In this document: one piece after another, positions 1 to 32,418 of the stretch
How positions within the stretch are numbered: position 1 is the first letter of the stretch
Layout: each line of letters begins with the position of its first letter
Assembly (NCBI GenBank): GCA_937928555.1
Contig: CALFWR010000128.1
Span: forward strand, 1-45,511
Direction of reading: 5' to 3'
Length of the DNA stretch: 45,511 nucleotides
Source of the DNA: an uncultured Pirellulaceae bacterium
GTDB lineage: Bacteria > Planctomycetota > Planctomycetia > Pirellulales > Pirellulaceae
Notes under the pieces: generated by a model
The model's input: only the letters and a program-made list of their open reading frames with translations
What the model was told of the DNA's origin: nothing
Database searches by the model: none
Position numbers and translations under genes: made by a program

Positions 1-137
1 AGCAAGGGAAAACTGAATTTCAACAAGAAATGTGAATCATTCGGTAGGTGAAAGCCACAGCGATCGTTTCATCGCATCAGAGTCGCGGATCACTGTCTCA
101 ACTGATTCTGACGCCCACGCCTCGTGAATAATTCGGG
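1..137 (+). mobile_element. MITE copy A (right 137 bp; left end outside window)
   Basis: This is the right-hand part of the 187-bp repeat seen complete at 9446, 10609 and 32232. It begins inside the core (AGCAAGGGAAAACTG) and ends with the right inverted end, which closes in GTGAATAATTCGGG at 124-137. One base differs from the usual AATAATCCGGG. The flank after the end is CTAAA (138-142), which fits the N-T-N-A-N target of the family. The left end and its duplication lie outside the window. Reading through it on the minus strand gives a spurious peptide containing IIHEAWA. Confidence 0.9.
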
Positions 138-262
138 CTAAAGTGGCATCGGCTTCCAGCGCGTGATCGACCGGTGAGAACCGGCCCTGCGGCTTTTGTT
201 TCAAGTTGGACCTGCGATGGTGCGATGACAACAATGAATCATTGCCTTTTGCGATACCGGTC

Positions 263-1060
263 ATGAAACCCTACGACCCTGAAAAACCGATTCTTTACAC
301 GCACATCCCCAAATGTGCGGGCACCAGTGTCGTGCGATTGCTGCGTGACTGGTACGGACGCTACTACCACAAACTCAATCAGGACGAGACCCGGGACATC
401 GTTCTTCCTCGCGTTGAAACAAAAGACGATCGCGGCTGCTGGTACAGCATGATCAAATGCGTTCACGGCCACTTCAATCATGGCCGTGGCTATGGGCTGC
501 CCTACTTTTACCCCGAAGTCGATCAGTATTTCACGATTCTGCGAGACCCCTTCGACCTGGTCGTGTCGATGTACTTCTTTGCCAAAGGCCGCAGCGCCAA
601 AGGCCAATTCTGGTTCCGTGGCCAACCGGTCGACATCCGCGACCAGTTCCCCGGCGTGGCCAGCTACGTGCGTTCGTATCCGTATTGGCTCTTTGACCAT
701 CTTCCCCAGGACATCACGCTTGCCAACTACGAACAGAAGTTGTCCTCAAAGTTTGTGTACATAGGAATCTTTGAAGACCTGCAGACCTCAATTGATAATC
801 TGGGCAAGGTACTGGGCAAGCCACAAACGCAACTACCGAAGTTCAACGTTTCCACATACGATGAGCCGGTTCCCGAATCGCTTCGCGACCAGTTTTACCA
901 TGACTACCCGCTGCTCAAACGTGTTTACCAGTTCGCGATCGATCGCTATCGCGATCCCAACGTCATGTCGGAGCAGAAGCGTCTTGAAATCATTGCCGCC
1001 GAAGAGTCCGAAAGCGAATCGCTTCGCAAAGACTCGATCCGCATCAGCGGCGTGGCCTAG
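263..1060 (+). CDS. Sulfotransferase-family protein
   Basis: Probable sulfotransferase (Sulfotransfer_2-like fold) that would move a sulfuryl group from PAPS to a glycan or similar acceptor. Near the N-terminus is the 5'-phosphosulfate loop HIPKCAGTSV, and about 90 residues later the 3'-phosphate motif ILRDPFDLVVSMY. These are the two hallmark PAPS-binding elements. I chose the ATG at 263 because it puts the first strand and PAPS loop directly at the N-terminus. An in-frame ATG at 206 would add 19 residues without similarity to the family. About 265 residues is normal for the group. A GT4 glycosyltransferase follows 111 bp later on the same strand, so a joint role in surface or exported glycan synthesis is reasonable but inferred. 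The acceptor is unknown. Confidence 0.85.
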   Translation: MKPYDPEKPILYTHIPKCAGTSVVRLLRDWYGRYYHKLNQDETRDIVLPRVETKDDRGCWYSMIKCVHGHFNHGRGYGLPYFYPEVDQYFTILRDPFDLVVSMYFFAKGRSAKGQFWFRGQPVDIRDQFPGVASYVRSYPYWLFDHLPQDITLANYEQKLSSKFVYIGIFEDLQTSIDNLGKVLGKPQTQLPKFNVSTYDEPVPESLRDQFYHDYPLLKRVYQFAIDRYRDPNVMSEQKRLEIIAAEESESESLRKDSIRISGVA

Positions 1061-1171
1061 CAACTTTCTCCGCTGGTTGCCTGGATGGATTCGTTGGGCG
1101 ACCTTTGGTGGTGGCATGGTTGATTCTCCACCTCATCGAATCACGCAACCACTTTTCAGGATCGCCTCAAA

Positions 1172-2293
1172 GTGAAGTTCGGATTCTATTCCTGCATGAG
1201 TGGCATGCCCTGGGGCGGCAGCGAAGTTCTCTGGTACAAGGCCGCGCGCCGACTGCAACATCAGAACCACGACGTGGCAGTGAATTTCAAATGGTGGCCC
1301 TACAAAGCCTTTCAGCTCGAAGAGCTGGAAAAGCATGGTGCCCTATTGCATCGACGCTACGCACGGCAACCCAAATGGAAAAAGTTCCTTGGTCCGATCG
1401 GCAAAGTCGATGAGTCGCCCGAAGCCTGGCTTGCCAAAACCCAGCCCGATGCGGTCTTGATCACCCTTGGTTACCACCCCGATCAGATCCTCATCGCCGA
1501 CGCCTGCCTGCGCAGGAAAATACCTTACGCCATCAATCTCCAGTGCGCCAGCAACTTTTTCTTCATCGCGTCGGACCGCCTCGAAAGCTACCAACGGTGG
1601 TATTCCCAAGCCAATAAAGTCCTGTTCGTCTCGCGTGAAAACCAGGACAAACTTCAAAACAACATCGCCTTGAAACTCGACAACGCCGAAATCGTCGCCA
1701 ACCCGTTCAACGTTGACTACAACGTCAACGTCCCCTGGCCCAAATCGGCCCAGCCATTGCGGGTCGCGGTTGTGGGCCGAGTCCATTTTCAGTCCAAAGG
1801 CCAGGACGTCATCGTCGACGTGATGAAGCAACCGAAGTGGAAAGACCGTCCGATCGAGATCACCTTTTATGGACACGACCAGGGTAACAAAGGCCAGTTG
1901 GAATCGCTGATCAAAATCCATGGCCTGGAAAAGCAACTCAAGTTCGGTGGCTTTGTTCGGGACGTCACCGAAATCTGGGCAGACAACCACGCGTTGCTGC
2001 TTCCGTCCCGCTACGAAGGAGCCCCCTTGGTGGTCACCGAAGCGATGCTTTGCGGCCGATTCGCGATCACCACCAACCTTGGCCGCAACGCCGAACTGAT
2101 GGACGATAACGAATCGGGATTTATCGCCGAAAGCCCCACCGTCCGCTTGCTCGACGAAGCCATGGAACGAGCGTGGGAAAAGCGTCAACAGTGGCAACAG
2201 ATCGGCCAGTTGGCTCGACAACACATCCGCGAACGCTATCCTGAAGACCCGGTGGGCGAGTACACCGCCCAGATCCTGTCCTTGGTAAAGTAG
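1172..2293 (+). CDS. Glycosyltransferase family 4 (GT-B fold)
   Basis: Retaining glycosyltransferase of the GT4 type, about 373 residues, expected in the cytoplasm or at the inner membrane. The start is GTG at 1172 (MKFGFYSCM, the first Rossmann strand). The C-terminal half shows the family pattern: RVAVVGRVHFQSKGQD opening the donor domain, then LLLPSRYEGAPLVVTEAM with the E-x7-E pair that holds the nucleotide sugar, then a helix running to the C-terminus. Donor and acceptor cannot be told from sequence. The sulfotransferase upstream suggests a small locus for a sulfated glycan. No terminator with a U-tract follows, only a GC-rich repeat. Confidence 0.88.
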   Translation: MKFGFYSCMSGMPWGGSEVLWYKAARRLQHQNHDVAVNFKWWPYKAFQLEELEKHGALLHRRYARQPKWKKFLGPIGKVDESPEAWLAKTQPDAVLITLGYHPDQILIADACLRRKIPYAINLQCASNFFFIASDRLESYQRWYSQANKVLFVSRENQDKLQNNIALKLDNAEIVANPFNVDYNVNVPWPKSAQPLRVAVVGRVHFQSKGQDVIVDVMKQPKWKDRPIEITFYGHDQGNKGQLESLIKIHGLEKQLKFGGFVRDVTEIWADNHALLLPSRYEGAPLVVTEAMLCGRFAITTNLGRNAELMDDNESGFIAESPTVRLLDEAMERAWEKRQQWQQIGQLARQHIRERYPEDPVGEYTAQILSLVK

Positions 2294-2444
2294 CAGGCTC
2301 CAAAGCAGTAAGCACCAAAGTAGTAGGCACACTCCGTGTGCCGTCGCGCGCACCACCCACCCACCGTCGCGCGCGACAGCCTCCAACAGTCGCACGACCA
2401 CATCGCAAACCTGAACCCAGCCAACTTCAGTAACGCCCATCACC
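2294..2444. repeat. GC-rich intergenic REP-like repeat
   Basis: This spacer carries a short near-repeat (AAAGCAGTA, then AAAGTAGTA), a perfect 7-bp stem-loop GGCACAC-TCC-GTGTGCC at 2326-2342, and the block GTCGCGCGC twice (from 2343 and about 2370). There is no U-tract, so it is more likely a dispersed palindromic repeat than a terminator. The rest leads to asnS, with no recognisable promoter. Confidence 0.5.
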
Positions 2445-3845
2445 ATGAACAAACTCTCTGTCAAAACTGCCCGCGACGAAACTTCCATCGGCCAAACCGC
2501 ATCGGTCAATGGCTGGGTCCGCACTCGCCGCGACTCCAAAGCCGGATTCAGCTTTATCGAAATCAACGACGGATCCTCCCAGGGCAACATTCAGATCGTC
2601 GCACCGGGGGAGCTTGCCAACTACGAAAGCGAAATCAAAAAACTGAGCGCCGGCTGCAGCATCACCGTCGAAGGCCAAATCAAGGAATCCGGCGGACGCG
2701 GACAAGCCACCGAAATTGCGGCCACCAAAGTCCACGTCTGGGGCTGGGCGGACCCCGAAGAGTATCCTCTACAAAAGAAACGCCACTCGTTTGAGAAACT
2801 TCGCCAGTGGGCTCACCTGCGTCCCCGCACCAACACCTTCGGCGCCGTCGCACGCGTTCGCAACTGCATCTGCAACTCCATCCACCAGTTCTACCAGGAA
2901 CAGGGATTCCTCTACGTCAACACGCCGGTGATCACCGCCAGTGACTGCGAGGGTGCCGGCGAAATGTTTCAGGTTACGACAATGAACCTGGAACAGATCG
3001 CCAAACAGGAACTCGAAAAACTGAACTACCGGTTTGACTTCTTTGACCGGCCATCGTTTCTGACCGTCAGTGGCCAACTGGAAGCCGAAACCTACGCCTG
3101 TGCCTTGGGAAAGGTCTACACCTTTGGCCCCACCTTCCGCGCCGAAAACTCGAACACGTCGCGGCACCTTGCCGAATTCTGGATGGTTGAACCAGAGGTC
3201 GCGTTTGCCGAACTGAGCGACAACATGGACCTCGCGGAAGCCTTTCTCAAGCGAATCTTTGCCGACGCTTTGCAGAAATGCCCCGACGACATGGCGTTCT
3301 TTAATGAGCGGATCGATGAAAGCCACACGCTGCTGGAGAACATGACCAACATCGTCGACAGTGACTTTGTGCGATTGCCTTACATCGAAGCGGTCGAAAT
3401 CCTCGAATCCTGTGGGCAAAAGTTCGAGTATCCCGTCAGCTGGGGTACCGACCTGCAAAGCGAACACGAACGTTTCCTGACCGAAGAGCATTTCAAAAAG
3501 CCGGTCATCCTGTTTGATTATCCGCGTTCGATCAAACCGTTCTACATGTACTGCAACGACGACGAAAAAACCGTCCGCGCGATGGACGTTCTGGTTCCCG
3601 GCGTCGGCGAAATTATTGGCGGCAGCCAGCGTGAACACCGCCTGGATGTTTTGACCGGGCGGATGGCCGAACAGGAACTCGATATCGATCACTACTGGTG
3701 GTACACCGACTTGCGGAAGTACGGCACCGTCCCGCACGCCGGGTTTGGCTTGGGCCTTGAGCGGGCGGTTCAGTTTGTCACCGGCATGGGCAACATCCGC
3801 GACGTGATCCCCTTCCCGCGCACACCCGGCAACGTCGACTTCTAG
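2445..3845 (+). CDS. asnS: Asparagine--tRNA ligase
   Basis: Class IIb aminoacyl-tRNA synthetase charging tRNA-Asn with asparagine in the cytoplasm. It has 466 residues, the normal AsnRS length. An N-terminal OB-fold anticodon-binding domain (about residues 15-105, with [20 protein letters not shown]) is followed by the class II catalytic core. Motif 1 region: [21 protein letters not shown]. Motif 2: [21 protein letters not shown]. Motif 3: [15 protein letters not shown] near the C-terminus. The SNTSRH stretch and the EGAGEMF insert favour AsnRS over AspRS. The start is ATG at 2445. It stands alone and is followed by a remnant of the 187-bp repeat. Confidence 0.97.
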
Positions 3846-3878
3846 CTACAGCTGGCTTGGGACGTCGCATTGTCTCAA

Positions 3879-3914
3879 CCGGAATGATTCACGACGACAG
3901 ACGTCGATTCGCGC
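3879..3914 (+). mobile_element. MITE remnant E (single left end)
   Basis: A single degenerate left end, CCGGAATGATTCACGACGAC, continues as AGACGTCGATTCGCG. It matches the first ~36 bp of the 187-bp family and is closest to remnant F at 12962. The base-by-base flank before it is CTCAA (3874-3878), again N-T-N-A-N. No matching right end lies within the next 1 kb, so this is a broken copy. It sits about 30 bp after the asnS stop codon. Confidence 0.6.
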
Positions 3915-4020
3915 CGAATCAGGCTGAAACGAAGGCCAAAGCCGAACAGATGACCGCCGAGCACCAGGAAATTCGCCACAGCGGACGACGGACCACACCG
4001 ATACCCCCGGCGACAACACC

Positions 4021-5064: not shown

Positions 5065-5166
5065 GGTACGACTTTCGGCAAATTTTTTCGACGAAGGTTT
5101 GCTCTTGTTGGTCACTTTTTTTGTCTCTGCTATCGGGCCTAGACCAAATTGCAAGCGATTTTTACG

Positions 5167-8100
5167 ATGACATTCCAACGTTCGGGGACCAACTCCCCAT
5201 CCTTCCGAGACAATTCTACAACTGGCGCAATGGGTAGACCTACTTCTGAAAACCCGATCTCGGTCTGCCTGGACAGCGTCATTGGCTATTTGAATTTTGC
5301 ATCCGGCAGCCACGATGTGCGATTCTTTGCCAATCTGGACGAACTGTTCCGTCAGCACAGCCAACCGCTCGCACTCCTGGACGAGCTACTGGAATCCGAT
5401 GCCCACAGTGTCGCCAGGAGCAACAAACGGGCGAACGCGGAAACCACCATCGAGCAGTTGCTTGATCGCAACGACCTGTTCGAACCCGCGATGTTCTCGT
5501 GGTCTTCGCTGTCTAGCGAATGCCGTGAAGAAACCTGGATCAGGATTCATGCCCAGATAATCCAGCGGCTTGACTGGCTCGAAGAGAACAACGAAACGTT
5601 TCGCAATTCGGCTCAGGTTCGGGACGTGCTGGGATTTGTCTACGAGGATCTGCTGCCGGCTTTTCTCAAATTCCACCGTGACCAACTTTTCCATCAGCGA
5701 ACTGAATTTCTTTTCAATTCCTTTTTCCTTGCAAGGGCTTTTGAGACCTCGCTGAAGAACATCGAACTGCCGCGAGCGGATCGCTTACGCACCGTCCTGG
5801 AGCAGTTCAACGACCACCTCGGACATCGACCGGTTGCCACACTCGAATCCCAAAACGTCGAACCCTACGATCACGAATGGATTCGCCCGGTTCCTGTCTG
5901 GGTCAAGGAATACGGCGCTGCGGTGGGCCCCTACGAAACCCTTGTCGGCCGCGCCATTGAAATCATCAAGGCAACTTCTGCGGAAATTTTGCACCAGGCG
6001 TGTTTCGATCCGGAAAACCTGGACGAATTGGCAATCGATCCGCGTGCGTTTGACTTTGACCATCCGATCAACAAACGACCCAATCACCACTTCGGGACGT
6101 GGGACGAGCAACAAATTGGCCCCGAAGGCTACTACCGTCGCTACATCATTCATCAGGTTACCCTTGATGGACTTTGCAAGCGAGTCAAAACCGAACTCGA
6201 AACAAGCAAGGTCTCCGAAGAAGAACTTCTCACCGAAGCCGCTTCTGTGCTGGCGTGCACCATCCTGATGGCGTCCGCGATCTGCGGCGACCGTGTCGGC
6301 ACCTGGGATTCGGAAACTGCAATCGAAACACTGCTGCCACGCATCGCCGCTTACCGGGACGAGTTTTACCGGCAACTGCTTCAGACCCTTCCCGAAACCC
6401 ATCGCCAGCGACTCGAAGCCGAAGCGGTCGAACGCCATCAACCTTTCGGCGCCGCCCGCCAGGCACTCAACGCCAACCTTTCGCAACGACGTGCCTCTCA
6501 GTTGGTCAACTGTCGGCTCGCTTCGATCTTTGCCCGGATGGGTTTTCCTGTTGCCGCCCAAATGCAACTCGAAGCCGTCCCGGTTGCTTCGGCTCGCGTT
6601 GTTTGCCGTATCGATTGCCTGCTGGCGGCATGCTCACAGGCGATCGAACGCAAGAACTTCGACGGAGCCCTAGGTGCGATTGAACGGATGGTCGAGCTTC
6701 TCAAACGGGGAATTCGCTGCGGTGCGATTGTCGATCCGTGGAACATCCTGGGATTCGACGCCAACTACAGCCTGTTTCCGGCACTGCAAAACTCGGTTCG
6801 AGACCACCGCGCGTTTGAATTGGTCGACTTGGTTGAAAGCGTCCTTGGCCTGTTTTCAAAACTCTGGAGTGCCGCCGCCGCCCAAGACGACGCTGTCACG
6901 TCGGCCAAAGTTCGCAGCCGCTTTGACGAAGTCGTCACCTGGTGGCGAAAGTACGCGGCCCACGAAGTCATGTCCGTCGATGCGGTCGATCCGGTCGAGA
7001 TTTTCGAAGCCGCCGAGTTGGTGTCCACCGCGCTAAACCTCTGGCACCGAGGCGGCGCTGCGGCGGGCGACATCCAGTTTTGGGCTCAACACGCACAACT
7101 TTTCGATTCACCCAAAGCCTACAAACTGGTGATCGATGCGCTGATGCAGCACAAGGACTATCGAACCGCCACGGCACTGTTGATTCACTGGGTTGGCAAT
7201 TCGCGAACCGTTGGGCTTCAGCAGGGAGCAAGCTCCTTTCACGATCTGATGTATCGCTGGATCGTGGAACAGAAGCAGTTACTGACCAACAATGTCCCGG
7301 ATTCCAATTGCAACATTCAGAGCAACGCCGAACCCGTTTCGCCCGAAGCGATGGACCAGGCATGGAAGCAGATCCGCCGTTTCCATGACTTCCTCGAAGC
7401 TAACGCCGAACTTTACTGGCAAGTACCCGAGTTCCAGATCGGTTGCGTGATCAGCAAAACCGACCCACCGCTGGAACCACTCGAGCCCGAGGATCCGACG
7501 GAAGACATTTTCAAAGGCGCCTATCCCGAAAACTTCATCTACGTCGACACCACCGACGATGGCATCGACGGATCAGTTCACGATGGTGGTAACGACATCG
7601 ATCCTTCTGAAGAAGCCCTCGCCGCTGAAGTCGATCGAGTTCTGGATCGACTGGAGTTTTTGGGGACACTCGCTTCGTGGTGGCGGATCGCTGCCACGGT
7701 TCCTTTTCCCGTTTCAGCGCCTTCAGAAAAGTTCTCCGACGCCGTTCGCGATCGCCTGCAACTGCGACGCCAGTGTGCCATGGACTGGGTCCGCCAGGCA
7801 TCGACCAACCGCGACAAACTGGCGGACCTGCTCGATTCGATCAATGCCCACAAACTTCCCCGCTCCGGAGGCACTCAGGCAGACAACGTCATCTACGATC
7901 AACATCGGCTCTTCAAAGAGTCTCTGCTTGAGCAGACGATTCGGACCAGCGTCGAAACCGAAAACGCGATTCATGCCTTGCTGGCGGTCGTCAACGCAGT
8001 CGATTCGCTCCTGGAAGAAACGCCCAACGCACTTACCGCCGAATCAGGTAGCGCCCGTTGGACCGATTCGCTGGTCAAAGTTCTGACCGGTGTCGTCCTT

Positions 8101-9444
8101 CAGGATCCCCATCGAGTTCACGAACATTTCGAACAACTCATCGCCGGCCTTTCAGCCCACCCGGTGCTCTACGTGCCTCTGGTCCGCGGCGGCGACCCTC
8201 GCCGGATCGTTGAAGTCCGCGTTGTCCAGTCCACCATTCATGAACTGCTACAAACCCTACCGCGGATGGGCATGTTTTCCGAAACCAGCATGCTGACCCA
8301 AACCGTGCTGCACATGGAACAGAACCATCCGGTTTCGATGGGCGCGGTCACCGAATTCGATGAACTCTTCAAAGTCGCGTATTGCGGGATGGTGAGCGCC
8401 CTGGTCAACGCCAACGACTCTCCCAATCCTCCCGGCGAAAGCAAAAATGGCGACCAAATGCTGTTTCGTTGCCTACATCTGTTAACCGAATCGATGCTTG
8501 GCCTGTGGCTTGACCACAGCAAAACGCTGCGACTGAGCGTTGTGGAAAAAGTCAACAGCAACCACCGCTGGAAACCACTGGTCGAATTCATCGAAAAATA
8601 CGGCGACGGTCTTTTGATCCAACATTTCCTGCACCCGGGAAATATCCGGGCCATTCTTCATCAGGGCGTGGAGAACTGGATCCAACAGATCGAAACCACA
8701 GGCGAATCCACCGGACTGAAGCTGTTTGACGATATTGCAGCGGGTGTCATTTCCCGGCCCACCGTCGTGGCACACCTGTCCCTGATCCTTGAAGCCATCG
8801 TCGAAAACTTCAACGAGTACCGCGACTACAACACGACCACAACCCAATCCGATCAAGGCAGCAAGCTCCACATCATGCTGGACTTTCTCCGGCTTCGCAG
8901 TCGTTACGATCGCGTCTGCTGGAAACTCAAGCCCGTGGTCTGGGCACACAAAATTCTGGTCGACAAAAAAGCCGCCAACGTCGCGAGAATGTGGCGTCGG
9001 TCCCTGAACGAAAAAATCCTCGAAAAAGCCCAGCAGTATCTTGGCTTGCTCGAAGAGCTTCGATCCCGCTACTCGATTCGTCTCGAATCGGTCGGCCGCC
9101 GTATCGAAGGACGATTTGAATCGCAAATCCAGATCGACCGCTTGATTGCCCTGATTGAACCGGCCGTCGCCAAACCGCCAACACACCAGTCGCGCAAGGC
9201 TTTCGATTTACTGCAGCGCGAAGCACAAACGTTTTGTAAAACAACAACCGGCGTCGGCATTGACCTTCCTCCATGGCTCGCGGCCCTTGAGCGCGAAGTC
9301 GACCAGATATACCTTCCCGCCCGACTCAAGCAGCGCAGCGAGACCAGCCAGTGGCACTGCGAGAACAATCTAGAACTTGCCGACCTGCGCCAACAGCTCA
9401 AAGAAATCGCCGAAGAACTCCGCGCCGAAACCGAAGAGCAATAA
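5167..9444 (+). CDS. Very large helical protein of unknown function (~1,425 aa)
   Basis: I do not recognise this protein. It is cytosolic by appearance: no signal peptide and no clear membrane segment. It is almost entirely alpha-helical, with regular hydrophobic spacing and many Leu, Glu and Arg residues, suggesting an alpha-solenoid or scaffold. A short acidic, Gly/Asp-rich break (about residues 775-815, with TTDDGIDGS) separates two helical halves. The C-terminus is a probable coiled coil (ELADLRQQLKEIAEELRAETEEQ). No nucleotide-binding loop or catalytic motif is visible. The first ATG is at 5167. ATG 5230 (MGRPTSEN) is an equally good start, and neither has a Shine-Dalgarno site. The stop codon TAA (9442-9444) lies inside the 5-bp target duplication of MITE copy B. 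Confidence 0.8.
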   Translation: MTFQRSGTNSPSFRDNSTTGAMGRPTSENPISVCLDSVIGYLNFASGSHDVRFFANLDELFRQHSQPLALLDELLESDAHSVARSNKRANAETTIEQLLDRNDLFEPAMFSWSSLSSECREETWIRIHAQIIQRLDWLEENNETFRNSAQVRDVLGFVYEDLLPAFLKFHRDQLFHQRTEFLFNSFFLARAFETSLKNIELPRADRLRTVLEQFNDHLGHRPVATLESQNVEPYDHEWIRPVPVWVKEYGAAVGPYETLVGRAIEIIKATSAEILHQACFDPENLDELAIDPRAFDFDHPINKRPNHHFGTWDEQQIGPEGYYRRYIIHQVTLDGLCKRVKTELETSKVSEEELLTEAASVLACTILMASAICGDRVGTWDSETAIETLLPRIAAYRDEFYRQLLQTLPETHRQRLEAEAVERHQPFGAARQALNANLSQRRASQLVNCRLASIFARMGFPVAAQMQLEAVPVASARVVCRIDCLLAACSQAIERKNFDGALGAIERMVELLKRGIRCGAIVDPWNILGFDANYSLFPALQNSVRDHRAFELVDLVESVLGLFSKLWSAAAAQDDAVTSAKVRSRFDEVVTWWRKYAAHEVMSVDAVDPVEIFEAAELVSTALNLWHRGGAAAGDIQFWAQHAQLFDSPKAYKLVIDALMQHKDYRTATALLIHWVGNSRTVGLQQGASSFHDLMYRWIVEQKQLLTNNVPDSNCNIQSNAEPVSPEAMDQAWKQIRRFHDFLEANAELYWQVPEFQIGCVISKTDPPLEPLEPEDPTEDIFKGAYPENFIYVDTTDDGIDGSVHDGGNDIDPSEEALAAEVDRVLDRLEFLGTLASWWRIAATVPFPVSAPSEKFSDAVRDRLQLRRQCAMDWVRQASTNRDKLADLLDSINAHKLPRSGGTQADNVIYDQHRLFKESLLEQTIRTSVETENAIHALLAVVNAVDSLLEETPNALTAESGSARWTDSLVKVLTGVVLQDPHRVHEHFEQLIAGLSAHPVLYVPLVRGGDPRRIVEVRVVQSTIHELLQTLPRMGMFSETSMLTQTVLHMEQNHPVSMGAVTEFDELFKVAYCGMVSALVNANDSPNPPGESKNGDQMLFRCLHLLTESMLGLWLDHSKTLRLSVVEKVNSNHRWKPLVEFIEKYGDGLLIQHFLHPGNIRAILHQGVENWIQQIETTGESTGLKLFDDIAAGVISRPTVVAHLSLILEAIVENFNEYRDYNTTTTQSDQGSKLHIMLDFLRLRSRYDRVCWKLKPVVWAHKILVDKKAANVARMWRRSLNEKILEKAQQYLGLLEELRSRYSIRLESVGRRIEGRFESQIQIDRLIALIEPAVAKPPTHQSRKAFDLLQREAQTFCKTTTGVGIDLPPWLAALEREVDQIYLPARLKQRSETSQWHCENNLELADLRQQLKEIAEELRAETEEQ

Positions 9445-9445
9445 A

Positions 9446-9632
9446 CGCGGATTATTCACGACGACGGGCGTTGATTCTACGTCTGGCCAACCGGAGTAAG
9501 GGAAAAGCTGAATCTCAACAAGAAATGTGAATCATCCGGTAGATGAAAACCACAGCGATCGTTTCATCGCATCAGCGTCGCGGATCACTGTCGCAACTGA
9601 TTCTGACGCCCACGCCTCGTGAATAATCCGGG
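9446..9632 (+). mobile_element. MITE copy B, complete, 187 bp, TSD ATAAA
   Basis: A complete copy of the 187-bp element. The left end is CGCGGATTATTCACGACGAC (second base changed from the usual CCCGG). The right end closes in CGTGAATAATCCGGG. It is bordered by a perfect 5-bp direct repeat ATAAA at 9441-9445 and 9633-9637. The left copy of that repeat contains the TAA stop codon of the large upstream gene, so insertion preserved the protein. The core matches copies A, C and D. No open frame of useful length is inside. Confidence 0.95.
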
Positions 9633-10455: not shown

Positions 10456-10560
10456 AGACGTTCAGCTCGAAAAAGAATCCTCACACGCCGCTTGATCGGC
10501 GGCATTGCGAAACCAGGTGACTCCTGCACAGAGGCTGAATCAAAACCCAATCGTTCAACC

Positions 10561-11184
10561 TTACAACGATTCCAGTTCCAGTTCAATCTTTCGAGCCTCG
10601 TCTCTCAACCCGGATTATTCACGACGACGGGCGTCGATTCTACGTTTGGCCAACAGGAGCAAGGGAAAAACTGAATTTCAACAAGAAATGTGAATCATTC
10701 GGCAGATGAAAGCCACAGCGATCGTTTCATCGCATTAGAGTAACCGATCACTGTCTCAACTGATTCTCACGCCCACGCCTCGTGAATAATCCGGGCTCAA
10801 ATCATCTCGCCAAACCGATAGCGCATTAAGAACCTGATCTTTTTGCAAGGTCATTGCCGCATCCATGCTTTTCCGCTGCGCCCAAAGAATCGGCCAAAAC
10901 AGGGGAACGATTGCATAGCAACCTTGCGCAACCCCGAACCCTGACATGCTGATCTTGATCGCCTTCAACCGGCTCAATTCATTCTTCAGAAAAAGCAACT
11001 TCGCCTTGCGGACTTCGTCCTCACTTAAACCCGACAGACCTGCTACGAACAGTTGCAATTTTTCGGGCGTTAATCCCTGGTTTGAGGTGAAATCCAATTT
11101 AGCTCCTTGAAATTTCGACAGGCTTGGAACTTCTTCGTCTCGGCACACAAAATATTGGCAAACACCTGGTTGATTTGGGTCCAT
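10561..11184 (-). pseudogene. Helical membrane protein gene split by MITE copy C
   Basis: From ATG 11184 the frame encodes about 129 native residues: a helical, charged segment (LSEDEVRKAKLLFLKNELSRL), one hydrophobic stretch (GCYAIVPLFWPILW) and a second helix ending VWRDDL. There MITE copy C (10609-10795) interrupts it and adds a foreign tail SPDYSRGVGVRIS before a stop. On the far side the same frame resumes as LRDEARKIELELESL and stops at 10561. Removing the element and one copy of the 5-bp duplication joins the halves in frame as WRDDLRDEARK, giving about 143 residues. The family is not recognised. The true start is uncertain. An overlapping 49-residue frame (11219-11070, containing KLGWTQINQVFANIL) also looks protein-like, so older frameshifts are possible. 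Confidence 0.7.
10609..10795 (+). mobile_element. MITE copy C, complete, 187 bp, TSD CTCAA
   Basis: A complete element with perfect outer ends CCCGGATTATTCACGA at the left and TCGTGAATAATCCGGG at the right. The inverted similarity continues inward to GGGCGT / ACGCCC, giving terminal repeats of about 26 bp with a few mismatches. It is bordered by direct repeats CTCAA at 10604-10608 and 10796-10800. It interrupts the coding frame described at 10561-11184. Only about one base in ten of the core differs from copy B by eye. Confidence 0.97.
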
Positions 11185-12086: not shown

Positions 12087-12201
12087 GACAGGGTTGAAGT
12101 AGCATAATCGCCGCACCGCTTCAATCCCGAGCCAACAGCACGGCACCTGAGGCGACAAACTCTGGCTAAAGCTGGCAATTAAGTCCTCGATGCAGCCCGT
12201 G

Positions 12202-12840: not shown

Positions 12841-12962
12841 GCATCAATCCAAAAAGCCATTGAACACCGCATCGTTTCGAAAAAGCCCCAGCGATACGGC
12901 TTTGCTGTTCGCTTACGCGCAACTCAACGCGAATCGACGGCTGCCGTCGTGAATAATTCCGG
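12841..12962 (-). mobile_element. MITE remnant F (divergent-core subfamily)
   Basis: Read on the minus strand from 12962, it begins CCGGAATTATTCACGACGGC, an outer end of the family. It later contains GGGCTTTTTCG and CGGTGTTCAATGG. The same two blocks (GGGCTTTTTTCGG, CGGTGTTCATTG) occur in copy G at 27081-27267, about 40 bp farther from the end. F therefore looks like an internally shortened relative of G that has also lost its other end, where the PP2C gene starts. The flank TTCAG (12963-12967) contains the stop codon of the neighbouring 180-residue gene. Confidence 0.6.
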
Positions 12963-12963
12963 T

Positions 12964-13506
12964 TCAGTTTACCGGCTTTCGCAAAATTTCGACCGCAATC
13001 ACTCTCGAGCCCTCCAGAAAGGGCTTGGAACCCATGCTTAGCATCGAAGAATCGGATGCGAGGTAAATTAAATCTCCATCAGCTAAAGGCGGGTTCGGCG
13101 CACAAGCGCGACTACTTCCATCGAAGTAATTATCCAATTTGGTCCCAATTCCACCCCCGCCGCACAGCGACTTGAGCGTGACAATTCCATCCGTCTCTGT
13201 CGTGGACACAGTTAGCACGGGCCATTGATTGGTATCAAACAGTTCGTATCCACCGGAAGTCAGAAGTCGCTTTTTCGATTTTGGATCGCCTTCGGTCAAG
13301 CTCACCAAGGCCACACCATAAAACTGCCCAAACGGCCTCAAGTCAACTTTCCAAATCCTTGCACCGGTAGCCCACGCAACGTCGGCGGCCGAGATCGTCA
13401 AATCCGGCTCGGACGACTCTTTGCGGTAGTTCCAGTAGGCCGCAACAACAGACACCCCCAAAATGACAATCATCAGCCATCGCAGGCTGTATTTAAATCG
13501 CGGCAT
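12964..13506 (-). CDS. Membrane-anchored protein of unknown function
   Basis: A 180-residue protein starting MPRFKYSLRWLMIVILGVSV. This N-terminus, basic residues followed by LRWLMIVILGVSVVAAYW, is a pattern I associate with many planctomycete proteins and gives one membrane anchor with the rest outside. The body (residues 35-180) is beta-rich with a glycine cluster LCGGGGIGTKLD and no catalytic motif I recognise. The TGA stop (12966-12964) lies inside the TTCAG flank of MITE remnant F, so an element inserted exactly at the end of this gene. Function unknown. Confidence 0.65.
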   Translation of the reverse strand: MPRFKYSLRWLMIVILGVSVVAAYWNYRKESSEPDLTISAADVAWATGARIWKVDLRPFGQFYGVALVSLTEGDPKSKKRLLTSGGYELFDTNQWPVLTVSTTETDGIVTLKSLCGGGGIGTKLDNYFDGSSRACAPNPPLADGDLIYLASDSSMLSMGSKPFLEGSRVIAVEILRKPVN

Positions 13507-21222: not shown

Positions 21223-21239
21223 AACAACCAGCCGTATCG

Positions 21240-23537: not shown

Positions 23538-23578
23538 GTCTTCCAACTACCACCGCAACCCGATCTTTGCTCAGGCAT

Positions 23579-24967: not shown

Positions 24968-25043
24968 CTTGCTCTCTGGAAAAATCTCTACCCAACAACG
25001 GACCCAAAAACTCGTCTACGCGAAACCTGCCGCTGGATTTCAG

Positions 25044-26408: not shown

Positions 26409-26728
26409 GATTGCTCACGGAAAGTGAAAGGTGAGCCGAACATTATAGGTAAGCGACTTTGGGTTTGCAGGTACCCAGTGGTCCGACTTCGATTCAGTGT
26501 CGGGCTATTGCGTATCCGGACTCGCCAGAGATCGGGGGATGTTGGACCAGCTTTGCGAGACCGGACAATTTCGCCAATTGAAGTGAACCACGGGTTGGCA
26601 CCCGTGGCTACAACATGCCGTCCCTTCGGGACTGATCGCGCAACCGCACCCGAGGCCTTACGGCCAACGGCTCACATCGCGCAACGCACCCGAGGCCTTA
26701 CGGCCAACGGCTCACTGTGCTGAACATC
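26409..26728. repeat. Gene-free stretch with REP-like hairpins and a 40-bp tandem pair
   Basis: No gene is supported here. From 26588 there are three palindromic blocks: stem-loop CCACGGG-TTGGCA-CCCGTGG (26588-26607), GTCCC-TTC-GGGAC (26620-26632), and two tandem copies of GCACCCGAGGCCTTACGG...GGCTCA (26646-26674 and 26686-26714) repeating with a 40-bp period. The same unit occurs once at 9801-9825 with two changes. These are typical REP/BIME-like intergenic repeats. They may also stop transcripts after yacG, but there is no U-tract. Confidence 0.7.
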
Positions 26729-26992: not shown

Positions 26993-27080
26993 CGCAGAGC
27001 CCCGCACAATCGCGGAACCGAAAGCCACATTCATCAAGAAATGGGAAGGGAGCTGACTCCCTTCCGTTTCACCATTTCAA

Positions 27081-27267
27081 CCCGGATTATTCACGAGGCG
27101 TGGGCATGACTTTTCGCTCGGTCAATGAACACCGTATCTGTCCGAAAAAAGCCCTGTTTTGGAACTCATCAGCGAGGTGAATCGCATTTTCCGGAGGCGG
27201 TCCAGCTTTGGGCACCTCTGGTGTGACGTAAACGGCAATCAACGCCCGTCGTCGTGAATAATTCCGG
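27081..27267 (-). mobile_element. MITE copy G, 187 bp, divergent core, TSD TTCAA
   Basis: Its ends match the family (CCCGGATTATTCACGAGGCG at the left, CGTCGTGAATAATTCCGG at the right). The orientation is reversed relative to copies A-D. The length is again exactly 187 bp. The perfect direct repeats TTCAA at 27076-27080 and 27268-27272 prove an insertion event. The core is very different from A-D: only patches such as AAATGYGAWTCA and GATGA line up at the same distance from the end. The right duplication directly abuts the stop codon of the small basic protein gene. Confidence 0.92.
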
Positions 27268-27272
27268 TTCAA

Positions 27273-27455
27273 TTACTTCTTGTTCAGCCCCATGGACTCG
27301 ATCAGCGCAGGAGCACCGGGAGTCATGTTACGAAGCTTGTCCGCGATCACCTGCTTTTCTGAACCATTCGCCCGCGCCGCACGATCACGAAGCTTGGCAA
27401 CTGCCTTTTTACGCTTACGACGCCGCTTGATTTCTTTTTCCCGTTCGCTTGCCAT
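27273..27455 (-). CDS. Small basic protein (60 aa)
   Basis: A 60-residue, strongly basic protein starting MASEREKEIKRRRKRKKAVA and continuing KLRDRAARANGSEKQVIADKLRNMTPG. I recall short proteins of this form from planctomycetes (possibly the group called DUF6800), but this is from memory. The first half is a charged helix that could contact nucleic acid; the second half contains MTPGAPALIESMGL. The start is ATG 27455, 48 bp from the divergent gene at 27504, so they share a promoter region. The stop TAA directly touches the target duplication of MITE copy G, so the element inserted just after the gene end. Confidence 0.75.
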   Translation of the reverse strand: MASEREKEIKRRRKRKKAVAKLRDRAARANGSEKQVIADKLRNMTPGAPALIESMGLNKK

Positions 27456-27503
27456 TTGTATATGATCCGGTGATTGAGACTCTTCGTATTTTTCCGAGCA
27501 AGA

Positions 27504-28565
27504 ATGATAGTAGATCGATTTCCTGAAATCAATCGATACACGCGAATCGCCGTAATGGCCGCTTGCGGGGCACTTCTGGCTGCAATTTCCGCTTTCGCTC
27601 AGGATGCCCACACCAACAAACGCTCGCCTTCCACGACCAAGCCCCCGAAATCGGACAAAGACACCAAATCCGGACCCTACGAGATCCTGGGGGCTTTCAC
27701 CGACCCTGAAATCACCGAAAGCAGCGGAGTCGCGATGGCGAGTCCGTTGGCAGACCCACAGGCCACGCCGGCGTTTTGGACATTTAATGACTCCGGTGGC
27801 AAGCCGGCGTTGTTTCGCGTTGACCTCTCGGGCAACACAACCGCCACCATCAAAATCGCTAAGACGATCAATCGCGACTGGGAGTGCATGTGCGCCTTTG
27901 ACCTGCAAGGCAAACGGCACCTCGCCATTGCCGATGTCGGCGACAACGCGAAACGCCGCAAGAATTGCCAAGTCTACATTCTGCCCGAACCGGTCGATCC
28001 ACTGCCCAAGACCGCCAATTGCAAAAAAGTAATCGACTTCACCTACGAGGATGGTCCGCACGACTGCGAAGCAATCGGCTACAACGCGGCCGACAACAGC
28101 TTCTGGCTGGTCGAAAAAGTCTACCTTGGAGCCAAACGAAAGAATCCGCCAGGAATCTATCGCCTGGAAAATCCATTTCTCGTCGACAAAAAAGACCGGA
28201 ACAACAAACCGCTGGTCGCCAGGAAAGTTGGCACCTTCAATGTTCGCAACGTCACCGGGATGGCTTTCTCTCCCGACCGAACCAAACTGATCATCCGCAG
28301 TTACTTCGTCTGCTACCTGTTCACAAAAGCCAACAACAAAACGTGGCTGGAAACGGTTCAGCAAACCAAACCCAAAACCATCGTGTGTCCGCTGCAAAGC
28401 CAGGGGGAAGCCATCTGCTTTATGCCCGATTCCAAATCTTTGTTGCTGACATCCGAACTGGCCAGAGCCCAATTTTGGAAAATCGATCTGGAACACGAAT
28501 CGACCAAGCCTCCTTCGCCGACGAAACCCGCCCAACCCAAACCACCGAAAACCGCAAACGAATGA
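27504..28565 (+). CDS. Secreted beta-propeller-like protein of unknown function
   Basis: About 353 residues from ATG 27504. A signal peptide (RIAVMAACGALLAAISAFAQ) is followed by a Lys/Pro/Thr-rich linker and a domain with repeated WTFNDSGG, HLAIADVGDNAKRR, SFWLVEKVY, VTGMAFSPDRTKLIIRS and GEAICFMPDSKSLLLTSE. This sequence of strands with Asp/Gly turns suggests a beta-propeller of the phytase or WD-like type. ADVGDN and DCEAIGY look like conserved calcium or active-site edges but I cannot name the enzyme. The C-terminus is Pro/Lys-rich. Its stop codon overlaps the M20 peptidase start (ATGA at 28562), implying coupled translation. Confidence 0.75.
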   Translation: MIVDRFPEINRYTRIAVMAACGALLAAISAFAQDAHTNKRSPSTTKPPKSDKDTKSGPYEILGAFTDPEITESSGVAMASPLADPQATPAFWTFNDSGGKPALFRVDLSGNTTATIKIAKTINRDWECMCAFDLQGKRHLAIADVGDNAKRRKNCQVYILPEPVDPLPKTANCKKVIDFTYEDGPHDCEAIGYNAADNSFWLVEKVYLGAKRKNPPGIYRLENPFLVDKKDRNNKPLVARKVGTFNVRNVTGMAFSPDRTKLIIRSYFVCYLFTKANNKTWLETVQQTKPKTIVCPLQSQGEAICFMPDSKSLLLTSELARAQFWKIDLEHESTKPPSPTKPAQPKPPKTANE

Positions 28566-29770
28566 GCCTAACCCACGAACAAGCCAGCACCCTTGCCTGG
28601 TTGGACGACAAACAGGACGAGATGGCATCGCTGATCGTCGAACTTTGCGACATCAACTCGGGCACCCACAACCTGGATGGACTGGCCAAAGTCCGTGACA
28701 GGATCGCGGCCGCTTTTACCGCGCTCGGCGGTGAACTGAACATCGTCGCATCCGATCCATGGGAGTCGGTCGACGATGAAGGCAACGCCAAAATAAAAAC
28801 TTCCGGCGACATGATCCACGTTCGCAAATGGCCTGACGCCAAACAGAAAGTCATGCTTTGCATCCACATGGACACGGTTTTCGGCATCCAGCACCCGTTT
28901 CAAAAATGCCGCCACGCCGAAGACGGAACCATCAATGGGCCGGGCGTGATCGACGCCAAAGGCGGCATCGTCCTGATGTTGTACGCCCTCCAAGCCCTCG
29001 AACAGGGTCCGCTGGCCGGCAAAGTCGGCTGGGAAGTCATCATCAACGCGGACGAAGAAATTGGCTCCCCCGGCAGCGACAAATTCATGCGACAAAGAGC
29101 ACCGCACTGCGACGCAGGAATTCTTTTCGAGCCCTCGCTTCCCGATGGAACGCTGGTTTCCTGGCGAAAGGGATCCGGCAATTTCGCCTTTGTCGTTCGC
29201 GGCAAATCAGCCCACACCGGTCGGGACTTTGCCTCCGGTCGCAACGCTTTGGCGGCACTTTCAAGAATGATGGTCCAAGTCGATGCCTGGAACGACGACC
29301 CCTCGGATGTCACCTACAACGTCGGTCGAATCCGTGGTGGTTCGGCACTGAACATGGTTCCCGACATGGCCGTGGGCAGAATCAACATTCGCGTCAAAAC
29401 TTTGGATCAGAAAGAACAGGCCATCGAACGCATGACCCAACTGGTCGAGCAACACGGCCAACAGGACGGCATCTCGGTCAGCCTGCACGGTGACTTCAAG
29501 TCGCCACCCAAACCGATGGATGCCGGAATCGAATCGATGCAGCGGCGCATCGAAGCTTGCGGCAAAAAGCTGGGCATGGAAATCAAGTGGCGAGGGACCG
29601 GAGGTGCTTGCGATGGAAACCGGTTCGCCGACGCGGGCCTTCCCAACATCGATACGCTTGGCCCCTGCGGTGACTTTATTCACAGCGATCGCGAGTTCCT
29701 GATGCCCGAGAGCCTCGTTCCGCGTGCCAAACTGGCCAGTCTGGTTCTGGCCAGTTTTGTCGGCCAGTAG
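28562..29770 (+). CDS. M20-family metallopeptidase / amidohydrolase
   Basis: A 402-residue zinc hydrolase of the M20 family (carboxypeptidase G2, ArgE and DapE relatives). Metal ligands and catalytic residues sit in the usual order: LCIHMDTVFG (His102, Asp104), GPGVIDAKGG (bridging Asp131), NADEEIGSPGS (catalytic Glu165, ligand Glu166), and a late CGDFIHSDREFL with the last His ligand. The dimerisation insert is marked by GKSAHTGRDFASGRNAL. No signal peptide is present, so it is cytosolic. The substrate is open; closeness to glutamate carboxypeptidases suggests an N-acyl amino acid or peptide. ATG 28562 overlaps the previous stop by 4 bases. Confidence 0.92.
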   Translation: MSLTHEQASTLAWLDDKQDEMASLIVELCDINSGTHNLDGLAKVRDRIAAAFTALGGELNIVASDPWESVDDEGNAKIKTSGDMIHVRKWPDAKQKVMLCIHMDTVFGIQHPFQKCRHAEDGTINGPGVIDAKGGIVLMLYALQALEQGPLAGKVGWEVIINADEEIGSPGSDKFMRQRAPHCDAGILFEPSLPDGTLVSWRKGSGNFAFVVRGKSAHTGRDFASGRNALAALSRMMVQVDAWNDDPSDVTYNVGRIRGGSALNMVPDMAVGRINIRVKTLDQKEQAIERMTQLVEQHGQQDGISVSLHGDFKSPPKPMDAGIESMQRRIEACGKKLGMEIKWRGTGGACDGNRFADAGLPNIDTLGPCGDFIHSDREFLMPESLVPRAKLASLVLASFVGQ

Positions 29771-29922
29771 TGGTTTGCTTTGGGGACGTGGCGTTTTGCT
29801 GGCGAAATCAGATGTCAAAAAATTCCGGTTAGCCCGCCGCTGAGAGTTCTGGCAAATTTCCGCAATGCGCGTGTTCTGAGACGCCGATAGCACTCCCGGA
29901 TACGGTCAAGCCCCGGACAATC

Positions 29923-30672
29923 ATGATTGCCAAACTCAACATCCCGTCGATTGGAGCGATTTGCGTCTGTGCATTGCTCGCTTTCACCACAGAAGTCCGC
30001 GGACAGCAGAACCGCCTGTTGCTCATCACCGGCACGTCGAGCACTCGCGTTCAGCAGCAGGCTGAAAAGCCCAGCGAAGACCTGTCGCCGGAGACGGCCA
30101 GCGAGCAGAGCCCTCCGGACCCTGAACAGTTTTCAAGCCGTGCCGACGATCCACTGATGGACCGATCCGCCCAAGACAAAGATTCCGCCATGGACCGGTT
30201 AAAGGCCATGGAAGATCTCGATGACTTGGGTGACTTCGACGACGAGTATGATTCCGACGAACCTCAGGCACGGCCAGTGACGCAATGGTCACTCAAGCCA
30301 ATGACGTCGCTCCGCGCGGGCCTGGGGGCATCGTCTACCAAACTTCCAGCCGACCAATCATTTCAGCTCACCGCCCGCCCGCTGCAATCGCTGGCGACTT
30401 CGGAAAAGCTGTTCGCGTGGGCGGCTCCGGAAATCCGGTACCAGCCGCTTCTGTTCGAAGACGTTGCCCTTGAGCGATACGGACAAACCCGCGGGTTCTA
30501 CCGGCAACCAGTTTATTCAGCGGCACACTTTCTCAAGTCCGCTGTTCTCCTGCCGTACAACTCCTTTTACGATCCGGTCGACTCTTGCGACTATCCCCTG
30601 GGCTACTGCCGCCCCGGCGACGCGGTGCCCTGCGTCAAGCAACGCGTGATGCTTCGCGGCCCCCGACGATAG
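29923..30672 (+). CDS. Secreted protein of unknown function
   Basis: A 249-residue protein with a signal peptide (IPSIGAICVCALLAFTTEVRGQ). After a long low-complexity, acidic stretch (about 45-115, with DDLGDFDDEYDSDE) comes a conserved-looking domain: LFAWAAPEIRYQPLLFEDVALERYG, then QPVYSAAHFLKSAVLLPYNSF, DSCDYPLGYCRPGDAVPC. I associate this pattern with planctomycete proteins that have no assigned function. Two or three cysteines in the final part could form disulfides. The start is ATG 29923. It stands alone, 152 bp after the peptidase gene, followed by a REP-like repeat and MITE remnant H. Confidence 0.7.
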   Translation: MIAKLNIPSIGAICVCALLAFTTEVRGQQNRLLLITGTSSTRVQQQAEKPSEDLSPETASEQSPPDPEQFSSRADDPLMDRSAQDKDSAMDRLKAMEDLDDLGDFDDEYDSDEPQARPVTQWSLKPMTSLRAGLGASSTKLPADQSFQLTARPLQSLATSEKLFAWAAPEIRYQPLLFEDVALERYGQTRGFYRQPVYSAAHFLKSAVLLPYNSFYDPVDSCDYPLGYCRPGDAVPCVKQRVMLRGPRR

Positions 30673-30847
30673 CCCTGGCAACACGACGCGTAGGTCCTGA
30701 AGTTGCAGATCATCAGCCGCGAAGCGGAGACAGGATATAGCCCCGTGCGCCAGCGGCGCCAGCGTGGGGTCATCGGTTCGCAGAACCACCCAAGCCGCGA
30801 AGCGGCGACATGAGAACCTGACGCCCACGCCTAGTGAATAATCCGGG
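30673..30847 (+). mobile_element. MITE remnant H (single right end) after a REP-like block
   Basis: The right-hand family end GACGCCCACGCCTAGTGAATAATCCGGG closes at 30847 (one base differs from the consensus CTCGTG). The flank TTTAA (30848-30852) fits the N-T-N-A-N target. The remaining 160 bp is not family sequence. It carries AGCCGCGAAGCGG twice (about 30716 and 30793), a GC-rich palindromic unit found in REP-like repeats. The left end is missing, so this is a broken copy, perhaps cut by recombination. Confidence 0.6.
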
Positions 30848-30902
30848 TTTAAAAGCCAGATTTTTACGAACATGGGGCATCTACACATTCTGTAAATGCT
30901 TT

Positions 30903-32189
30903 CTAGGGATGCAGCTCAGCTCTCAATACCTCAAGAAAGAACTGCTTGACTCCAGGAGCAATGAAACTATCGCCAGATTCAAACATAGGAATCGACTTGA
31001 TCGGTTCTGGGCGGTTTGGCGTTGAATCTGATGCCATCAACCATCTTTGGTTCAATTTCGGTTGGCCGACAATCCGGAATTCCTCTGGAAAAACCGCGTC
31101 GACCCATCGGTTTGCCTCTATCAGTGACAGCCCTTTCTTTCTCATCAACATCTTCATTTGCAAGCTTGCTGTTAGCAAGAAGTCCGGAGCAGCACGCGTT
31201 TTGAATTGATAATCCTTGGTTACCTGTTCCTTTTCGTGCCACTTATTCCATTTCTCCAAAATACCGTCTACGGTCGCCGGGGAGCAGAATTCGGAACACA
31301 AAAACAATTGAGATTCAATTGCATGGTTAGTCTGATACGGAACAAGTACCCCTGTTTCCCAAACGTCTTGAAACTCTGCAAATTCACGATCAAAATTTGC
31401 TTTTGCAATTTCGCCAGCCGCATTTTTGTCGAGTGTTGAGAGTAGCTCATGAATTCGTGCCACACGGCGATCAGCGAGGATTCCTCTCAATGAAATACTT
31501 GGTCCAGATGACGGCAGTCTTGCTGGCACAATGATCTTTCGCAGGGCTTGAGAGTTTTGATTCAACGACTCATTTAGCTCTTCGAAAGACATCTTGGCTG
31601 TTTCCAACAAAAATGCTTCTTGGACGGCTTGAAACCTGTTCTTGGGAAAAGTCCTCCATCGCTTCAATTGCTTGTCGAAGTCTGTGTCAACACCTCGATT
31701 AGATCGAATCGCGATTTCTGAAAGCTTGATCTCTATTTCCGCCGAAACAGAAATCTTAAGAGGACTTTGGGGGTGGTTTCTGGGCAAGTAAAACGCCAGA
31801 TAGTCACTACCTGCGGCAAACTGTTTTAGCGGCAATTCTTTTTCTCCCTCACTCAAAAGGGATACTGACTTGATATCCTCAATATTGTCGAGAGGTCGCA
31901 GCACCAGTAAGTCGAAAAGCCCGATCACTTTCTCAGTATGCTTTGGCAACGTGTATCCGTCACTTGGCATGACAAAATCGCCTGCGTGAAGCTGCACTTG
32001 AATCAACTGCGTCTTTTCTTTGTTCCACTGACACTTTTTGTCCAGAACAAATTCCTTCAACAAATAACTATGAGATTCCCTTCTCTGTTCTGTTCTGCTT
32101 TTTACTTCCGTTTGTCTTGCAAACAATTCAGGAACCTGAAACAAAACCACCACAAAAAGAGTCGTCAGAAAGAGTTGCATCTGCATCAC
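30903..32189 (-). CDS. AT-rich secreted protein of unknown function
   Basis: A 428-residue protein that I do not recognise. A signal peptide (QLFLTTLFVVVLFQVPELFA) sends it out of the cell. The mature part is a mix of helix and strand with many Lys and Glu, and includes WRTFPKNRFQAVQEAFLLE and RWVDAVFPEEFRIVGQPK. No catalytic motif is evident. Base composition is clearly lower in GC than the neighbouring genes (e.g. 31201-31260), suggesting recent arrival. It lies between MITE remnant H and the complete copy D, which breaks into a ruined ygiQ. The start is ATG 32189 or 32186 (two Met codons in tandem). Confidence 0.7.
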   Translation of the reverse strand: MMQMQLFLTTLFVVVLFQVPELFARQTEVKSRTEQRRESHSYLLKEFVLDKKCQWNKEKTQLIQVQLHAGDFVMPSDGYTLPKHTEKVIGLFDLLVLRPLDNIEDIKSVSLLSEGEKELPLKQFAAGSDYLAFYLPRNHPQSPLKISVSAEIEIKLSEIAIRSNRGVDTDFDKQLKRWRTFPKNRFQAVQEAFLLETAKMSFEELNESLNQNSQALRKIIVPARLPSSGPSISLRGILADRRVARIHELLSTLDKNAAGEIAKANFDREFAEFQDVWETGVLVPYQTNHAIESQLFLCSEFCSPATVDGILEKWNKWHEKEQVTKDYQFKTRAAPDFLLTASLQMKMLMRKKGLSLIEANRWVDAVFPEEFRIVGQPKLNQRWLMASDSTPNRPEPIKSIPMFESGDSFIAPGVKQFFLEVLRAELHP

Positions 32190-32231
32190 TTACTTCTCCC
32201 CAAAGTCTTATTGGATTCAAAGGCTTATTAG

Positions 32232-32418
32232 CCCGGATTATTCACGACGACGGGCGTTGATTCTACGTCTGGCCAACAGCAGCAAAGGAAAAGCTGAATT
32301 TCAACAAGAAATGTAAACCATCCCGTAAATGAAAACCACAGCGATCGTTTCATCGCATCAGAGTCGCGGATCGCTGCCGCAACTGATTCTGGCGCCCACG
32401 CCTCGTGAATAATCCGGG
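32232..32418 (+). mobile_element. MITE copy D, complete, 187 bp, degenerate TSD
   Basis: A complete element with outer ends CCCGGATTATTCACGACGACG and CTCGTGAATAATCCGGG. The core matches A-C. The flanks are ATTAG (32227-32231) and GTAAG (32419-32423): three of five bases agree and both fit N-T-N-A-N. This is either an aged duplication or a sign that sequence on one side was replaced. The right end abuts the broken ygiQ directly. Confidence 0.93.

What the first reader, a model, noticed from the sequence alone, without database searches (positions are those of the whole stretch)
1..32418. Family of 187-bp non-autonomous elements with terminal inverted repeats, at least eight copies or remnants in 33 kb
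Seen directly: complete copies at 9446-9632, 10609-10795, 27081-27267 and 32232-32418, each exactly 187 bp. A further copy (1-137) is cut by the window edge, and remnants lie at 3879, 12841-12962 and about 30819-30847. Outer ends are CCCGGATTATTCACGA in inverted orientation and extend to about 26 bp. Three complete copies have perfect 5-bp duplications. All but one lie between genes. Reading through them gives a spurious peptide with IIHEAWA and DSDAMKRSLW that may be misannotated as protein. Inference: a MITE mobilised by a DDE transposase elsewhere in the genome. The 5-bp duplication and CC-rich ends would suit the IS1380 group, but I cannot test this.
Basis: partly seen in the sequence, partly recalled or inferred. 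Interest (0 to 1): 0.8.

Follow-up and report, generated by a model that had tools for sequence, protein, structure and literature searches.

The report
Abundant IS1380-type MITE in a planctomycete
The 187-base repeats are small parasitic DNA elements that cannot move by themselves; an estimated 500 or more copies are spread through this one bacterium's genome, and their ends match those of a known family of transposons (IS1380), whose enzyme most likely moved them.

Summary
The finding is real. They belong to a genome-wide family: about 530-580 near-full-length copies by scaling, 2.5% of a 1.24-Mb sample. Of 134 sampled elements, 82 have a perfect 5-bp target duplication (4 bp: 4; 6 bp: 1), target NTNAN. 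Sampled insertion points avoid long ORFs (19 of 136, against 77% of random points). Tests for coding and for internal RNA structure gave no convincing signal. At least four subfamilies share ends and length; copy 27081 belongs to a minor one. Of 27 congeners only G015 carries relics with these ends. The exact 16-bp end CCCGGATTATTCACGA caps IS1380-family (PF13701) insertion sequences in G087, G494 and Planctomycetes bacterium CA13, and MITE-like elements in other planctomycetes. Caveats: no IS1380 with these ends was found in this draft genome, and the close-end relatives duplicate 4 bp, not 5. A new, unusually abundant member of a known kind.

The parts
1..137 (+). MITE main subfamily, cut by the contig edge (positions 50-187 of the element); right flank CTAAA
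   Evidence: (93% to copy 9446)
3879..3944 (+). remnant with a left end (CCGGAATGATTCACGACGACAG), 77% similar to the remnant at 12897-12967
9446..9632 (+). complete MITE, main subfamily, TSD ATAAA; sits at the TAA stop codon of ORF 5149-9444
10609..10795 (+). complete MITE, main subfamily, perfect 16-bp TIR, TSD CTCAA
27081..27267 (-). complete MITE of a minor subfamily (same ends, different interior), TSD TTCAA
30818..30847 (+). remnant: right end only (30 bp, 97%)
32232..32418 (+). complete MITE, main subfamily, perfect 16-bp TIR, degenerate TSD ATTAG/GTAAG

Best explanation
A high-copy family of non-autonomous DNA transposons (MITEs). A DDE transposase of the IS1380 family (Pfam PF13701), supplied in trans, bound the ends (16-bp core CCCGGATTATTCACGA plus a GGGCGT block), moved the element and joined it to a target with a 5-bp stagger at NTNAN; repair gave the 5-bp duplications. 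Shown: the ends, the exact 5-bp TSDs, the target preference, high copy number, subfamilies, and the same end core on IS1380 elements elsewhere in the phylum. Inferred: that an IS1380 transposase did the mobilising here, how the ends are bound, and that the partner was lost from, or is missing in, this assembly. Insertion points avoid long ORFs, probably because insertions into genes were selected against (inference).
For: 1001 end cores in G000, control 0. 82 of 134 sampled elements with perfect 5-bp TSDs, 4 at 4 bp, 1 at 6 bp; in the 82, T at base 2 in 80 and A at base 4 in 78. Exact 16-mer at both ends of a PF13701 IS in G087; exact at one end and 2 mismatches at the other in G494; 16/16 and 15/16 in two IS copies of Planctomycetes bacterium CA13. 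MITE-like elements of 144-268 bp with this end core in other planctomycetes, five of them with CTAG on both sides. Elements inserted in elements. Insertion points outside long ORFs.
Against: No IS1380 with these ends was found in G000. PF13701 gives three hits: L061 has other ends (CCTAGTCCTTAAACAAG); L062 is a C-terminal remnant whose nearby end reads CCCGAATATTTCATC; L063 is weak, and the one end found near it has the main-subfamily sequence and runs away from it towards the contig end. Close-end ISs make 4-bp duplications, these elements 5 bp at NTNAN. In the 40 best BLAST rows printed against the IS1380 and 16-mer loci in hand, matches are 17-18 bp of end, plus one of 28 bp at 86% (L228), so no parent IS is identified.
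Confidence: 0.9

Rival explanations
1. A MITE mobilised by a transposase of another family that also uses CC-rich ends and 5-bp duplications; the shared 16-mer would be convergence or end capture.
For: TSD length (5) differs from the 4 bp seen in close-end IS1380s. No partner found in the assembly.
Against: Exact 16-mer on IS1380s in three planctomycetes. An IS1380 member with a 5-bp duplication is on record (ISPsp9, PMC4133298).
Confidence: 0.07
2. The interior is a functional RNA or coding unit (structured RNA or palindromic peptide element), and mobility is secondary.
For: Uneven conservation inside the element (positions 100-121 differ about 3% from consensus, 78-99 about 11%). One frame open on one strand in two minor subfamilies. 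Weak 3-base periodicity in the main subfamily (permutation p 0.024; 0.15 and 0.60 in two minor ones).
Against: Synonymous/nonsynonymous/stop changes are close to expectation in all six frames of three subfamilies. No Pfam or NCBIfam match for four peptides at E up to 1. On the consensus fold of 89 copies, 4-5 two-sided and 108-132 one-sided changes keep pairs, 52-58 cells break them. Interior of one copy folds no better than shuffles, z -0.58. The only Rfam match in the window is outside the elements.
Confidence: 0.03
3. REP/RAYT-type or other palindromic intergenic repeats spread without a DDE transposase.
For: Mostly outside long ORFs, hairpin-forming ends; a REP-like repeat does exist elsewhere in this genome.
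Against: Exact 5-bp duplications and long non-palindromic interiors.
Confidence: 0.01

Closest known systems
IS1380 family insertion sequences of planctomycetes (1682-bp IS of Planctomycetes bacterium CA13, L221/L222; IS of G087, L129)
   Same: 16/16 (G087 both ends; CA13 left end) or 15/16 (CA13 right end) identity in the terminal 16 bp; T and A at fixed places in the target
   Different: They carry a PF13701 transposase and duplicate 4 bp (CTAG/TTAG), against 5 bp (NTNAN) here; no similarity seen beyond the 16-18 bp ends
ERIC, Correia, MITEAba12 and other prokaryotic MITEs (review PMC10969869 and PMC6382973, passages read)
   Same: Short, multicopy; MITEAba12 also has a near-constant length (90% at 113 bp, abstract passage)
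   Different: MITEAba12 makes 9-bp duplications. The estimated copy number here (about 530-580) is near the largest named in the review passages, ERIC in Photorhabdus (711). The word search in that review gave 0 occurrences of IS1380 and of Planctomycet
TIMEs (Tn3-derived MITEs, PMC4133298, passages read)
   Same: Non-autonomous, 5-6 bp duplications
   Different: 38-bp Tn3-type ends, 262 bp for TIME1-4, usually single copy

Membership tests
MITE | Short (about 30-300 bp), many copies | tested here: met
   187 bp; 134 elements of 183-191 bp in 1.243 Mb
MITE | Terminal inverted repeats | tested here: met
   16-bp perfect TIR in the main consensus and in window copies 10609 and 32232
MITE | Target site duplication of fixed length | tested here: met
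   82/134 perfect 5 bp; 4/134 at 4 bp; 1/134 at 6 bp
MITE | No transposase gene | tested here: met
   187 bp; changes near neutral expectation in six frames, no Pfam/NCBIfam match for four peptides
MITE | Ends shared with an autonomous element (not required to be in the same genome) | tested here: met
   16-bp core on PF13701 ISs of G087, G494, CA13; none found in G000 itself, a 91%-complete draft that often breaks at these repeats
IS1380-derived | Ends like those of IS1380 elements | tested here: met
   Exact 16-mer on PF13701 ISs in G087 (both ends) and G494 (one end), 16/16 and 15/16 in CA13
IS1380-derived | 4-5 bp duplications | tested here: met
   5 bp here; 4 and 5 bp listed for two IS1380 members in PMC4133298. 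The close-end relatives seen here make 4 bp
IS1380-derived | Internal sequence left from a parent IS (not required: end-only MITEs are a recognised type, PMC6382973 passage) | tested here: inconclusive
   40 best BLAST rows against loci in hand: end matches of 17-18 bp and one of 28 bp; the true partner may not be among the loci
IS1380-derived | Partner IS1380 with these ends in the same genome | tested here: inconclusive
   Three PF13701 hits, none with these ends; draft incomplete
IS1380-derived | Moved by an IS1380 transposase | not testable with these tools
   needs an in vivo or in vitro assay

The most novel reading that the evidence does not exclude
A species-specific burst to an estimated 500 or more copies, driven by an IS1380 transposase of a branch that cuts with a 5-bp rather than 4-bp stagger (NTNAN in place of YTAR) while keeping the same end core, and that has since been lost, leaving four or more divergent subfamilies as a fossil record. 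It would be among the largest bacterial MITE expansions, and an IS1380 one.
Probability: 0.45. Interest if true: 0.5.

Novelty: new member of a known kind. Interest (0 to 1): 0.38.

Why it matters
It adds to planctomycetes a very abundant MITE family tied by its ends to IS1380. It probably explains part of this draft genome's fragmentation (13 of 40 sampled contig starts begin in a copy), and it gives a clear 5-bp NTNAN target rule to test against the 4-bp, mostly YTAR, rule of its closest end relatives. Peptides read through it (RIIHEAWA..., PDYSRGVGV...) should not be annotated as protein.

Tried and rejected
Coding interior: rejected; the frames open in two minor subfamilies are not supported by substitution patterns, though the main subfamily's weak periodicity (p 0.024) stays unexplained. 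Structured RNA: rejected. A special constraint on the 187-bp length: not needed in my view. 109 anchored main-subfamily copies show 21 gaps per 1155 substitutions (1.8%), and the three minor subfamilies align to each other with 1, 1 and 5 gaps; but the main subfamily aligns to the minor ones with 2, 7 and 8 gaps that nearly cancel in length, which this does not explain fully (mononucleotide shuffles as control). Internal third end (element positions about 81-95): a 95-bp element ending there has a 4/5 duplication (L211:973-1067), but it is one case. Autonomous IS in the sample: end pairs up to 2.5 kb apart were listed; ORFs were printed only for the six pairs over 900 bp, and none looked like a transposase (by eye, no Pfam search). 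Hits in congeners G004, G007 and G019 lie inside a long ORF that by eye reads like a zinc peptidase, so taken as chance. Twelve further single hits in family and order genomes were not opened; the control pattern gave 7 single hits in the same call. Literature: the nine listings showed no title or abstract start about an IS1380-end MITE in planctomycetes; only open-licence PMC papers are held. I read passages of five papers (PMC4133298, PMC10813416, PMC10969869, PMC9208149, PMC6382973), none in full.

Full report
What is there. The four complete copies, the cut copy and the remnants are at the stated places, except that the left bound of the remnant ending at 12962 is shown only to about 12897. 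Three of the four complete copies have perfect 5-bp duplications, the fourth a degenerate one. The copy at 9446 sits on the stop codon of the ORF 5149-9444, within the duplication ATAAA. The copy at 27081 shares only its ends with the other three at BLAST level and belongs to a minor subfamily.

How many. The window is a whole contig (C128) of a 4.87-Mb draft in 168 contigs. The exact right-end pattern occurs 435 times with 0 in the reversed control; a pattern for both end types occurs 1001 times with 0 in the control. Pairing ends gives 134 elements of 183-191 bp. Scaling 136 elements (183-194 bp) by length or by end counts gives about 533 or 579 per genome; BLAST with four consensuses marks 176 places and 2.48% of the sample. 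13 of 40 sampled contig starts have a copy beginning within their first 30 bases, so the assembly often breaks at these repeats and counts may be low.

Mobility. 82 of the 134 have a perfect 5-bp duplication; 4-bp and 6-bp duplications number 4 and 1. In the 82, base 2 is T in 80 and base 4 is A in 78. Copies also sit inside or against other copies. With 10.4 substitutions per 187 bases from the consensus on average (89 main-subfamily copies), about 56% of duplications would be expected still perfect if they decayed at that rate and all divergence came after insertion (my arithmetic), against 61% seen. No two of these 89 copies are identical (nearest neighbours differ at 2-20 places), which fits a burst that is over, though identical copies may have collapsed in assembly.

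Subfamilies. 136 elements, selected at 183-194 bp, fall into clusters of 106, 14, 8, 5 and three singles. Their interiors are homologous: the six consensus pairs score above shuffles, z 3.7-12.1; the weakest pair is reached by 3 of 500 shuffles, the others by none. The left and right ends differ consistently after base 16 (CGACGGGC against GGCGTGGGC). The same asymmetric ends, with other short interiors, occur as two relics in one congener, G015. Among the other 26 congeners held, 23 have no hit and three (G004, G007, G019) have one hit each inside an ORF.

Placement. After taking the elements out, 19 of 136 insertion points fall inside ORFs of 200 codons or more, against 77% of random points (28 of 136 against 82% at 150 codons); ORFs were called mechanically.

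Not convincingly coding, not a structured RNA. Changes among copies are close to neutral expectation in all six frames of three subfamilies; the main one has a weak 3-base periodicity (p 0.024), two minor ones none (0.15, 0.60). Four peptides have no Pfam or NCBIfam match. On the consensus fold of 89 copies 4-5 cells are two-sided changes and 52-58 are broken, and the interior of copy 10609 folds no better than shuffles. One promoter/terminator scan around two copies gave 0 promoter-like and 2 terminator-like sites, no more than in shuffles.

The link to IS1380. PF13701 was sought in 197 genomes including the own one; 83 have a match. I looked for inverted ends around the 30 loci given: L129 (G087, same taxonomic family) has the exact 16-mer on both sides of a transposase gene (331.7 bits to PF13701) with CTAG on both sides, 1684 bp by the coordinates. 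Some others have related ends (CCCGGATATTTCAT, CCCGGATTATTCATTGG and the like) with mostly YTAR duplications; many loci, often fragments, gave no clear ends. The exact 16-mer is found in 6 of 391 other genomes sampled over the phylum, at 23 places, control 0. I read 21 of the 23; the other two are opposite ends of elements read. They hold MITE-like elements of 144-268 bp, five with CTAG on both sides, some with imperfect duplications, and in G494 a 1721-bp PF13701 element (407 bits) with one exact and one 2-mismatch end. 29 of 72 gave ends starting CC with such a duplication, 28 of them 4 bp, several being copies within one genome. Planctomycetes bacterium CA13 has 16/16 and 15/16 with CTAG and TTAG; L224 shows TTTAA, 5 bp.

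Against. No IS1380 with these ends was found in the draft: three PF13701 hits, one with quite different ends (L061), one remnant with a CCCGAATATTTCATC end (L062, read), one weak (L063, the ORF that is also the only PF01609 hit). The one end found near L063 has the main-subfamily sequence and runs away from it to the contig end. The 4-bp against 5-bp difference is real. Both lengths occur in the family: PMC4133298 (table passage) lists ISPa33a with 4 and ISPsp9 with 5. That the partner was lost rather than missed is inference.

Verdict. An ordinary kind of thing, a MITE, at an unusual number, with a well supported family assignment of its ends. The review passages read (PMC10969869) name ERIC in Photorhabdus at 711 copies as a high count, so an estimated 550 or so in 4.9 Mb is among the larger.

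Noticed in passing
window 26588-26633 (+): Rfam match Acido-Lenti-1 RNA (49.7 bits, gathering 37), about 450 bp from copy 27081.
   Followed up: no
L321 (G000:C32:1-600) and L314 (G000:C22:1-600); by eye a similar motif in the window at about 9651 and 9871: Another palindromic repeat, GTAGGGCCGGTTCCCACCGGCC, in tandem units of about 181 bp (L321) and at about 40-50-bp spacing (L314), REP-like.
   Followed up: no
L062 1608-2531 (G000:C30): ORF that looks (by eye) like a REP-associated (RAYT/Y1) transposase next to an IS1380 C-terminal remnant.
   Followed up: no
L148, L155, L162 (G596): Pairs of the same 16-bp end (0 and 2 mismatches) only 55-57 bp apart around a hairpin-like core.
   Followed up: no
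L060:973 = L211:973-1067: 95-bp half element that ends at the internal end-like motif of the main subfamily, flanked by TTGAG/TTCAG.
   Followed up: partly
window 34924-35108: Degenerate tandem repeat, offset about 80 bp (79% identity).
   Followed up: no
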